Below, in pieces: positions 2,581 to 10,606 of a stretch of 64,000 nt of DNA; positions within the stretch are counted from its first letter, which is position 1, and each line of letters opens with the position of its first letter. The stretch is from positions 46,926,001 to 46,990,000 of the forward strand of contig NC_133167.1 in the NCBI RefSeq assembly GCF_040802235.1. The letters run 5' to 3'. The DNA is from Manis javanica. Taxonomy: Eukaryota; Chordata; Mammalia; Pholidota; Manidae. The position numbers and the translations under genes were made by a program. The notes beneath the pieces were generated by a model that had not been told where the DNA came from, searched no databases, and saw nothing but the letters and a program-made list of their open reading frames with translations.

Positions 2581-2675
2581 TGTTGGCAGCCGCGCTCAGA
2601 AAATAGCGCCCCATGCAGGGCAGCCGGAAGGCCCCGAACTTCCTAATGACAAATCATCCCACACCACTAAACTAC

Positions 2676-2732
2676 ATGCTAATTGCGCCTTGGCATAAGG
2701 ACCAATGAGACCCACCAAATGGTTATGCTAAT
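2676..2732 (+). promoter_or_regulatory. Paired octamer-like (POU-type) motifs in U3
   Basis: ATGCTAAT occurs at 2676-2683 and again at 2725-2732, 49 bp apart, with a CCAAT box between them. It resembles the POU octamer ATGCAAAT with one change. Binding is inference only. The same pair is in the 3' LTR at 10368-10375 and 10417-10424. Confidence 0.4.
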
Positions 2733-2774
2733 AAGGCATATGGAGCCACACCAACCAGGTCAGAGCATGAGAAC

Positions 2775-2781
2775 TATATAA
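2775..2781 (+). promoter_or_regulatory. TATA box of the 5' LTR promoter
   Basis: TATATAA lies 67 bp upstream of AATAAA (2842-2847), which fits a short R region starting around 2805. It should drive the genomic and spliced env RNAs. CCAAT at 2702-2706 is upstream. Confidence 0.75.
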
Positions 2782-2916
2782 GCAAGCCTCTCCTTCCCCT
2801 CTGGGTCCTGCCCAACTCATTTGTTTCACAAAGAGCTGAAGAATAAAGCTTTCTGCAGAAGAATCCTGCTGTTGTTGCATGCTGTTCTTGCCGGCGAGGA
2901 CAGGGCACGCGACAAG

Positions 2917-8242: not shown

Positions 8243-9926
8243 GCCTATGCCTGTCCGTTTCAATGCAGCCGTTTTTCCGCGCTTTTTCACTACCAATACT
8301 AGTATGAACTTGCCCTACTTAGTTAAAGACACCCTAGTAGCTCCCCTGGGAGAAAACCGATCCTTCGTAACTAATGGGTCATTATGCTTCACCACTCAGA
8401 ATCTAGCTGGCTGTATCTCCCTGAAACGGAGGAAATACGGATGGTTCAGTGACATAATTCTAGAGGCCAGTAGCCTCCCCGTTATGTCAGCTAAATTTGA
8501 AGGGCCTAATAAGGAAGGGAGCCCGTCCTATAAGAACATGACTATCCACCAGATGGTTCTCTGGATCAATGGCACATTTGTACACTCTCCCAGGAACAAT
8601 TCCACCAACAGGCCTCGTCAACCCAAATATGCCTCCCATTGTGTGGGCGACTATGAGGGAGAGCTGTGGCCCTGGACTGACTGTCAGTCAACTGTAGTAA
8701 CGTGGGCAACTGAGAGGCAGGAGTTTACCATCTCCCCAAATATGGAGGGACGGCCAGCCAATGAGGCTTGGTGGCCAGTAAAGGTGCTCGAAGGCGAGTT
8801 TCGTCAGCAGCTGAGCATGAACCCCTTCCATAAATGGATGCTGTGTGGAGTCAATGGCTCGTGTACCGACCTCTCCCCCTTTTCCGCCCTCCAGGGTGGG
8901 GGAATCGGTGTAAAAAATATCACCTTTTGGTGCGAGAATAACCACATGCGCGCACACTGGAACATGATCATGACCCATAACAACGAGAACTACACGTGTT
9001 CAGCAAAATCAGGTCCAGAGTCACCTAATTCCCTTTTTCCACCTTCTCCAGTATGCGTATACCCCCCATTTCTGTTTATCTTATCCAATAGTAGCTTTGA
9101 CTCCTGCTCCAATGAAACCTGCTTTCTGTCTCAGTGTTGGAATGCGCGTAACTTTACCAATGCTTTGGTAGTCCGCATCCCCCGTTGGGTCCCTGTTCCC
9201 GTAGACGCCCCTAACACCATGACTCTGTTTCGAGAAAGGCGCGATTTCGGTGTTACAGCCGCCATAGTGCTCCTGATCTCCGCGACCGCGGTCGCAGCCA
9301 CCGCCGCTGGTATAGCTTTAGACACCTCCATCAAATCGGCTACAGAGCTCAATAACCTTGCAGCCTCAGTAGCTTCTGCCCTGGACCAACAGTCCACACT
9401 TGATGGCAAACTGAAAGGAGGAATAATGATCCTCAATCAACGCATAGATCTCGTGGAGGAACAAATGGAGGTGCTCTGGCAAATGGCCCAATTGGGATGT
9501 GAGCGGAAATATCGTGCCCTCTGCATCACTAGCATTCAATATAAAAATTTTACACGGGCAGCTAATCTGTCACGAGACCTGTCCCAGTATCTTTCAGGAA
9601 ACTGGTCCCAAGACTTCGATGGGACACTAGAAGAGCTGCGGCGAGAAATTATCCACATCAACTCCACCCGTCTAGATATCTCCGTAGCGGAAGGACTCTC
9701 TTCCTGGTTCCTCAGAGCTCTCTCCCACGTCAAGGAGTGGGCGGGCATGGCTGGGATGGGCGTGTTCCTGCTTGGAGGTCTCATGCTCTTACTCTGGTTG
9801 TTATGCAGACTCCGCAACCAACATAAGCAGGACAAGGTGATCCTTGCTCAAGCCCTAATGGCGATAGACGTTGGCGCCTCTCCCCAAGTGTGGCTCAACA
9901 TGCTTAAGAAGGAAGCTCGGCTTTAG
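8151..9926 (+). CDS. env: Env glycoprotein (SU-TM), betaretrovirus type, intact
   Basis: 591 codons. The ATG at 8151 is followed by a short signal-peptide-like stretch (core LYLLTLLLTL, likely cleaved near residue 19). SU carries many N-X-S/T sites and no CXXC motif. A furin-type RERR at 361-364 precedes a hydrophobic Ala/Val-rich fusion-peptide-like region (365 to about 390). TM has a coiled-coil-like segment and a CX7C loop (C450, C458), which is the beta type rather than gammaretroviral CX6CC. The membrane anchor is about 533-552, leaving a tail of about 39 residues. It would sit in the cell or virion membrane and mediate entry. The gene is expressed from a spliced RNA in related viruses. 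The reading is unbroken, and its start overlaps the end of pol. Confidence 0.93.
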   Translation: MSSLYLLTLLLTLETPTQGVLRWGILSAFPKPMPVRFNAAVFPRFFTTNTSMNLPYLVKDTLVAPLGENRSFVTNGSLCFTTQNLAGCISLKRRKYGWFSDIILEASSLPVMSAKFEGPNKEGSPSYKNMTIHQMVLWINGTFVHSPRNNSTNRPRQPKYASHCVGDYEGELWPWTDCQSTVVTWATERQEFTISPNMEGRPANEAWWPVKVLEGEFRQQLSMNPFHKWMLCGVNGSCTDLSPFSALQGGGIGVKNITFWCENNHMRAHWNMIMTHNNENYTCSAKSGPESPNSLFPPSPVCVYPPFLFILSNSSFDSCSNETCFLSQCWNARNFTNALVVRIPRWVPVPVDAPNTMTLFRERRDFGVTAAIVLLISATAVAATAAGIALDTSIKSATELNNLAASVASALDQQSTLDGKLKGGIMILNQRIDLVEEQMEVLWQMAQLGCERKYRALCITSIQYKNFTRAANLSRDLSQYLSGNWSQDFDGTLEELRREIIHINSTRLDISVAEGLSSWFLRALSHVKEWAGMAGMGVFLLGGLMLLLWLLCRLRNQHKQDKVILAQALMAIDVGASPQVWLNMLKKEARL

Positions 9927-10258
9927 CTTGAGGTAGCTCTTGCACCCTGAGCCCATGTGGCACTGCACCAGGCCCGAGTACCTCAATGCTTAATCACAGC
10001 TTTCTTTAAGAAGCTCATGGTGCAAGAGGGTTGAGAAAAAGGGTCCAAACCCTTTGTACCAAGCGGTCCCAACGCCAGCCAGAGGATGCGAGGCAAAGCA
10101 CTGCAAGAGGTCTTGGACCCCTCTGAGAGGCATGCCTGACTGCATAGGGGTAGATGCCCAGAACCCCTCTCCAAAAAGGGGGCATCAGGAAGTATGATGG
10201 AGGTCAGGCCTCTGTCTCCGCCTCTGCTGGCAAGTTCCGCCTTGAGCTTCTGTTAGAC
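9927..10258 (+). promoter_or_regulatory. Post-env noncoding segment with strong stem potential; possible RNA export element
   Basis: 332 bp between env and the PPT with no credible reading frame. Self-complementary pairs: CTCTTGCACC (9937-9946) with GGTGCAAGAG (10019-10028); AAAGGGT/ACCCTTT around a CCAA loop (10038-10055); and GATGCCC (10153-10159) with GGGCATC (10180-10186), with further C/G runs inside. Simple betaretroviruses keep a constitutive transport element here, and no Rev-like gene is visible. The role is inferred from position and structure only. Confidence 0.45.
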
Positions 10259-10272
10259 AAAAAAGGGGGAGA
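10259..10272 (+). other. Polypurine tract of the class II provirus
   Basis: AAAAAAGGGGGAGA directly precedes the TG of the 3' LTR. It is the plus-strand primer site and defines the left edge of U3. Confidence 0.9.
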
Positions 10273-10606
10273 TGTTGGCAGCCGCGCTCAGAAAATAGCG
10301 CCCCATGCAGGGCAGCCGGAAGGCCCCGAACTTCCTAATGACAAATCATCCCACACCACTAAACTACATGCTAATTGCGCCTTGGCATAAGGACCAATGA
10401 GACCCACCAAATGGTTATGCTAATAAGGCATATGGAGCCACACCAACCAGGTCAGAGCATGAGAACTATATAAGCAAGCCTCTCCTTCCCCTCTGGGTCC
10501 TGCCCAACTCATTTGTTTCACAAAGAGCTGAAGAATAAAGCTTTCTGCAGAAGAATCCTGCTGTTGTTGCATGCTGTTCTTGCCGGCGAGGACAGGGCAC
10601 GCGACA
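10273..10606 (+). repeat. 3' LTR of the class II provirus
   Basis: 334 bp, identical by eye to 2581-2914. TATATAA lies at 10467-10473 and AATAAA (polyadenylation signal for viral RNAs) at 10534-10539. It ends in CA, followed by the right CTCATC duplication. Confidence 0.95.

What the first reader, a model, noticed from the sequence alone, without database searches (positions are those of the whole stretch)
2581..10606. Apparently intact, very young env-bearing IAP-like provirus
All four genes are unbroken, every catalytic and zinc-binding residue I checked is present, and the two 334-bp LTRs show no difference. LTRs are identical at integration; at about 2e-9 substitutions per site per year, one difference would be expected about every 0.7-0.8 million years. 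That makes this likely a recent, possibly polymorphic and possibly still active germline insertion. Most mammalian IAP-type elements lack an intact env.
Basis: partly seen in the sequence, partly recalled or inferred. Interest (0 to 1): 0.92.

Follow-up and report, generated by a model that had tools for sequence, protein, structure and literature searches.

The report
Young env-bearing IAP-like pangolin provirus
In a genome that matches the Malayan pangolin, this is a retrovirus copy with all four genes open and two identical ends, one of about 530 closely related insertions that likely spread through the germline recently as an envelope-using virus rather than only as an internal jumping gene.

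Summary
Window 2581-10606 is a complete class II provirus: two identical 334-bp LTRs, a 6-bp target duplication (CTCATC), gag, pro, pol and env open. Eleven of 11 paralogous ERV-Fc copies examined show the uninterrupted target. Contig lengths and Env identity tie the genome to Manis javanica. Pol is 64-65% identical to mouse and Chinese hamster IAP; Env falls in a pangolin clade beside rodent Envs.

It is not a singleton: the genome holds 532 LTR/primer-site junctions. Nineteen sampled LTR pairs average 1.84 differences per 334 bp, about 1.25 My at 2.2e-9 per site per year. In 40 random copies env persists in 38 and is fully open in 17. Env variants shared between copies are depleted in amino-acid changes; single-copy variants are near neutral; pol behaves alike. 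GG-to-AG changes are in excess, an APOBEC3-like mark. One LTR-env-LTR element ends exactly at a GT/AG junction, so env RNA was spliced and reverse transcribed.

Verdict: a young, likely Env-dependent IAPE-like family, new member of a known kind. Polymorphism and present activity untested.

The parts
1044..2357 (+). Env remnant of the older ERV-Fc provirus that was hit by the insertion (437-aa open frame)
   Evidence: TLV_coat Pfam; 90% identical to a 561-aa Manis javanica ERV-FC1 Env
2575..2580 (.). Target-site duplication CTCATC, left copy
   Evidence: single copy in paralogous empty sites
2581..2914 (+). 5' LTR, 334 bp
   Evidence: identical to the 3' LTR
2917..2934 (+). Primer-binding site, tRNA-Phe type
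   Evidence: sequence; the tRNA assignment is recalled
3017..3018 (+). Env splice donor (exon ends at 3017, GT at 3018-3019)
   Evidence: junction of the LTR-env-LTR element at C2:73335284-73335328
3085..4842 (+). gag, 585 aa; MGNAPS start, PPPY, two CCHC boxes
4665..5615 (+). pro frame: dUTPase, retropepsin, G-patch; heptamer AAAAAAC at 4695 in the gag overlap
5591..8242 (+). pol frame: RT, RNase H, integrase; heptamer GGGTTTT at 5603 in the pro overlap
8089..8090 (+). Env splice acceptor (AG at 8088-8089, exon starts at 8090)
8151..9926 (+). env, 591 aa, GP41-family transmembrane part, RERR cleavage site
10259..10272 (+). Polypurine tract
   Evidence: sequence
10273..10606 (+). 3' LTR, 334 bp
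   Evidence: identical to the 5' LTR
10607..10612 (.). Target-site duplication CTCATC, right copy

Best explanation
This is a provirus with all genes open and identical LTRs from a young IAP-lineage (IAPE-like) family of about 530 insertions in a genome that matches the Malayan pangolin, and the family likely multiplied through the germline by an infectious cycle that uses its own Env. Shown here: structure, target duplication, empty target in paralogs, copy number, low LTR divergence, env kept and constrained among copies, G-to-A strand bias, one reverse-transcribed spliced env RNA. Inferred: transcription from the LTR, -1 frameshifting for pro and pol, budding at the plasma membrane (Gag has a myristoylation-type start), Env-mediated re-entry into germline cells. 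Untested: whether this copy is polymorphic or active now.
For: Identical LTRs, TSD and open genes. 532 LTR/primer-site junctions, 0 in the reversed control. Separate insertions: matching 6-bp TSDs in 31 of 32 sampled pairs. Env sequence in 38 of 40 random copies, fully open in 17. Env variants shared by two or more copies: 36 changing to 34 silent against 2.32 expected (p 0.0015); single-copy variants 107 to 52 against 2.44 (p 0.34); contrast p 0.027. Pol piece: shared 24 to 35, single 78 to 37. Reverse transcription met a deaminase: GG-to-AG 36 of 97 sites against CC-to-CT 8 of 132 in env, 29 of 63 against 6 of 139 in pol. Env RNA was made and spliced: the one LTR-env-LTR element.
Against: With the random copies alone the contrast of shared and single-copy env variants is not significant (p 0.14; against neutrality p 0.018). 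APOBEC3 also acts on intracellular IAP transposition (abstract of PMC2531183 in the listing), so editing alone does not show an extracellular step. The env changes private to or rare beside the window copy (457, 589, 991) lie before A, not at GG. Pangolin carries two stops in env and four in pol among shared variants, so defective copies also moved or mutated in parallel. No expression or particle data here.
Confidence: 0.7

Rival explanations
1. The family spreads inside germ cells by retrotransposition with its own Gag and Pol, like mouse IAP, and env is a passenger that has not yet had time to decay.
For: High copy number is typical of env-less IAPs (review PMC10536682, passages); env is broken in 21 of 40 random copies and missing in 2; the random-only contrast is weak (p 0.14).
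Against: Shared env variants are depleted in amino-acid changes (36 to 34, p 0.0015), not significantly less than pol (p 0.29); gag starts with MGNAPS, a myristoylation-type start.
Confidence: 0.2
2. A few intact proviruses supply proteins in trans and most copies, this one perhaps included, are passively moved RNAs.
For: Many random copies have broken env or pol: 21 broken and 2 missing env of 40; 12 broken, gapped or partial and 2 missing pol pieces of 40. A spliced env RNA, which codes no Gag or Pol, was copied once. Four shared stop variants in pol and two in env.
Against: Shared variants in both pol and env are depleted in amino-acid changes, so the copied templates were mostly functional; single-copy variants, the bulk of damage, fit mutation or editing at or after the last insertion.
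Confidence: 0.08
3. The copy is an assembly artefact, a segmental duplicate, or an old insertion whose LTRs were made alike by gene conversion.
For: A tandem arrangement is suggested around C5:150894007 (coordinates), and LTR conversion is a known process.
Against: Own TSDs and flanks in 31 of 32 sampled pairs; clean empty target in 11 of 11 paralogs; low divergence also in env and pol, outside the LTRs.
Confidence: 0.02

Closest known systems
Murine IAPE-D (env-bearing IAP; PMC2531183, passages read)
   Same: IAP-type Pol relatives, beta-type Env, reported spread by germline reinfection, G-to-A traces
   Different: Mouse; editing context GXA there, GG here; here env is retained across hundreds of young copies
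Mouse and hamster IAP (P0092, P0108)
   Same: Pol 64% and 65% identical
   Different: Those IAPs are env-less (PMC10536682, passages); this one has an open env
ERV-Alpha-Mpen of Manis pentadactyla (PMC12584738, abstract, section 5 and passages)
   Same: tRNA-Phe type primer site (as I read their PBS-Pro/PBS-Phe sentence), dUTPase and G-patch, gag-pol-env; possibly the sister lineage (inferred; a M. pentadactyla Env, P0009, is 61% identical)
   Different: 13 full-length copies and 1.41-3.47 My there; 532 junctions and many identical LTR pairs here
Invading ERVs (ERVi) of Manis javanica (PMC10435555, passages and section 9)
   Same: Same species in the Fig. 6 legend; criteria are identical LTRs, intact genes and polymorphism
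   Different: The text seen does not say which retrovirus is meant; supplements were not read
IAP-related ERV genes of Malayan pangolin skin (PMC10776870, passages)
   Same: Same species; IAP-like genes reported as 11% of ERV genes in the genome and 19% of the differentially expressed ones
   Different: In the passages seen, no locus, structure, age or env analysis of the family

Membership tests
IAP lineage of class II ERVs | Pol groups with rodent IAP Pol | tested here: met
   64-65% identity to mouse and hamster IAP; 19-row clade with them, support 98 (quick tree, midpoint root)
IAP lineage of class II ERVs | tRNA-Phe primer site and 6-bp target duplication | tested here: met
   6-bp TSD in 31 of 32 sampled relatives; tRNA name recalled
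IAP lineage of class II ERVs | Particles budding into the endoplasmic reticulum (classical IAP) | not testable with these tools
   no particle data; Gag starts MGNAPS, which rather suggests membrane targeting
IAPE (env-bearing IAP) | Open beta-type env related to rodent IAPE-like Envs | tested here: met
   GP41 Pfam, no CX6CC, sister to a nine-row clade whose five named members are rodents; that these rodent Envs are IAPE is inferred
IAPE (env-bearing IAP) | Infectious extracellular cycle | tested here: inconclusive
   env constraint and editing fit it; not shown directly
ERVi (invading ERV, PMC10435555) | Identical LTRs and intact gag, pro, pol, env | tested here: met
ERVi (invading ERV, PMC10435555) | Insertional polymorphism in the host population | not testable with these tools
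   one assembly only; no resequencing data

The most novel reading that the evidence does not exclude
A non-rodent mammal is being colonised now by an infectious IAPE that reached superspreader copy number without giving up env, breaking the rule that high-copy ERVs are env-less; its Pol nests among rodent IAPs, so the founder may have jumped from a rodent to a pangolin, and its env message is itself occasionally reverse transcribed into a stand-alone LTR-env-LTR gene.
Probability: 0.3. Interest if true: 0.82.

Novelty: new member of a known kind. Interest (0 to 1): 0.55.

Why it matters
The IAP story rests on rodents: env-bearing relatives and env-less superspreaders. Here a non-rodent genome holds about 530 insertions of an IAP-lineage virus caught early, with env still in place and constrained. 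That makes the order of events (spread first or env loss first) directly testable by comparing copies and individuals. It also concerns a critically endangered host (Manis javanica is listed as CR in the Fig. 6 legend of PMC10435555).

Tried and rejected
Solitary-provirus reading: rejected by 532 junctions. Segmental duplication: rejected by separate TSDs and flanks. Gamma-type env by recombination, as described for beta lineages of the Chinese pangolin: rejected, no CX6CC and a GP41-family Env. The short element at C1:111333206 as a second spliced-env copy: rejected, its leader runs on into gag. Rfam and tRNA scans of the window found nothing. Counting all LTRs (and so solo LTRs) and env 40-mers genome-wide was planned, but the tool did not complete (LTR; env: 114, 117, 120, 122). 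One search prints 12 of 13 identical pairs in the LTR-chosen set; the right number is 11, because in L012 the end of the 5' LTR was clipped by the local alignment and differs at position 333.

Full report
Observation. The two LTRs (2581-2914, 10273-10606) are identical over 334 bases and flanked by CTCATC on both sides. [quoted passage not shown] The frames step by -1 from gag to pro and from pro to pol, and slippery-type heptamers AAAAAAC (4695) and GGGTTTT (5603) lie in the overlaps in the right register (register checked by hand from the coordinates).

Host and setting. The Env query returned a 98% identical protein of Manis javanica, and another M. javanica protein on a contig of 217,799,483 bases, the exact length of G000:C3; a second match is 174,144,158 bases for C5. 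So the genome is most likely a Malayan pangolin assembly. Upstream lies an ERV-Fc env remnant, 90% identical to a M. javanica ERV-FC1 Env. The upstream flank has 40 scored matches in the genome, the window included (2027 first-look candidates). In the 11 paralogs whose DNA was returned, of 39, the two flanks run on without an insert: 10 have a single CTCATC, one (L160) CTCGTC. That is the empty target.

Relatives. Pol is 64% identical to mouse IAP and 65% to Chinese hamster IAP and sits with them in a 19-row clade, with Nannospalax outside (43 of the 120 listed proteins, quick tree, midpoint root, most rows without a named host). Env lies in a ten-row clade that holds every named pangolin Env put into the tree, beside a nine-row clade whose five named members are rodents (34 of 55 proteins). 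The nested Pol hints at a rodent source but does not prove it.

Copy number and age. 532 LTR/primer-site junctions match with at most two mismatches, none in the reversed control. The 40 scored LTR hits (of 1024 first-look candidates) make 14 full-length pairs, the window included, with LTR starts 7676-7692 apart, two short pairs and eight LTRs whose partner is not among the 40. The tool listed 100 of the 532 junctions (exact matches, contigs C1-C6); I drew 40 at random from the 89 not yet sampled. Of every second one of these (20), 19 have a 3' LTR at the expected place: 0 to 5 differences, mean 1.84, five pairs identical. At 2.2e-9 per site per year this is 1.25 My; at 1.47e-8 per generation and one-year generations, as used in PMC8288997 (passages), 0.19 My. 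For the window copy the 95% upper bound is 2.0 My or 0.31 My. The 13 pairs chosen by LTR similarity to the window are younger, 11 of 13 identical, but that choice biases them. The window LTR carries C32 and A168; 17 of 19 random pairs carry A32 and G168, 12 of 13 LTR-chosen pairs C32 and G168. So the window copy seems to belong to a late sublineage. Two copies do not fit a simple succession (L012 with A32/A168; L123/L124 with different states at 168), which recombination could explain.

Env. In the 13 LTR-chosen copies env is open in 12; in the 40 random ones it is open in 17, broken in 21, missing in 2. Of 74 copies scored with the Env protein (1625 first-look candidates) 73 have no stop, but that search favours intact ones. 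Among 52 env rows, window included, variants in one copy only are near the neutral expectation (107 changing or stop, 52 silent; expected 2.44; p 0.34), while variants shared by two or more copies are not (36 to 34; expected 2.32; p 0.0015; contrast p 0.027; without CpG sites 12 to 15 against 78 to 36, p 0.026). My reading is that single-copy variants are mostly changes at or after the last insertion, while many shared ones passed through replicating viruses; recurrent CpG and GG changes would blur the contrast, not make it. With the random copies alone the contrast is not significant (30 to 25 against 99 to 51, p 0.14; against neutrality p 0.018). A pol piece of 600 codons in the random copies shows the same pattern more strongly (24 to 35 shared, 78 to 37 single, p 0.0007); env and pol do not differ significantly (p 0.29). 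Of 40 pol pieces 26 are open and gap-free, 12 broken, gapped or partial, 2 missing. The reading is that env was needed while the family spread.

Editing. G-to-A changes at GG sites are in excess over the mirror-image CC-to-CT changes: 36 of 97 against 8 of 132 in env (p 4e-9), 29 of 63 against 6 of 139 in pol (p 3e-12). GA sites show no clear excess (env 6 of 91 against 3 of 116 for TC, p 0.19). GG is the context of human APOBEC3G reported for HERV-K, where mouse IAPE-D shows GXA (PMC2531183, passages). It shows reverse transcription in the presence of a deaminase; by itself it does not show an extracellular step. Relative to most sampled copies the window copy has A for G at LTR 168 and env 457 (shared with two other rows), 589 and 991; the three env sites precede A, not G, so they do not bear the GG mark.

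Spliced env. The element at C2:73332790-73335743 is LTR, 103-bp leader, env exon, LTR. Its junction joins window 3017 to 8090, with GTAAGT after the donor and a pyrimidine-rich tract plus AG before the acceptor; its TSD is CTAAAA and its env is open. It is the only such junction found with up to two mismatches. The best reading is a reverse-transcribed spliced env RNA, which fixes the env splice sites. The other short element, at C1:111333206, is a different deletion.

What is already in print. IAP-related ERV genes and their expression in Malayan pangolin skin (PMC10776870, passages), Manis javanica as a species with invading ERVs (PMC10435555, passages and section 9), and a low-copy lineage with tRNA-Phe-type primer site in the Chinese pangolin (PMC12584738, abstract, section 5 and passages). 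In the listings, and in the passages read, I saw no account of this family's copy number, env constraint, editing or spliced env element; most subscription papers and all supplements were out of reach.

Mechanism. Commitment: an infectious, Env-using cycle in or near the germline (0.7), with intracellular retrotransposition as the main rival (0.2). Activity today and polymorphism of this copy are open.

Noticed in passing
G000:C2:73332790-73335743 (L049, L051): LTR-env-LTR mini-provirus with an exact splice junction, its own TSD (CTAAAA) and an open env: a reverse-transcribed spliced env RNA, the only such junction found in the genome.
   Followed up: yes
G000:C1:111333206-111336185 (L050, L052): Another short element (LTR starts 2660 apart, TSD GCTATG) with a large internal deletion not at the splice sites; its leader runs into gag.
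   Followed up: partly
window 1-2580 and 10607 onwards: The insertion lies in an ERV-Fc provirus of a high-copy family (2027 first-look candidates, 40 scored) with a 437-aa open env remnant.
   Followed up: partly
G000:C5:150886991-150896485: Coordinates of an env hit and a primer-site junction suggest two tandem proviruses sharing one LTR; worked out by hand, the shared LTR was not read.
   Followed up: no
P0057: A Pol 100% identical to the window's occurs in metagenome or transcriptome collections (6 contigs, the longest 8321 bases); whether from pangolin RNA or DNA is unknown.
   Followed up: no
P0143: A protein filed under Trypanosoma congolense is 66% identical to this IAP-type Pol over 74% of it; probably host DNA in that assembly.
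   Followed up: no
L123/L124 (G000:C5:61054507-61062793): The two LTRs of one provirus carry different states at position 168, which separates sublineages; mutation or template switching between co-packaged genomes.
   Followed up: no
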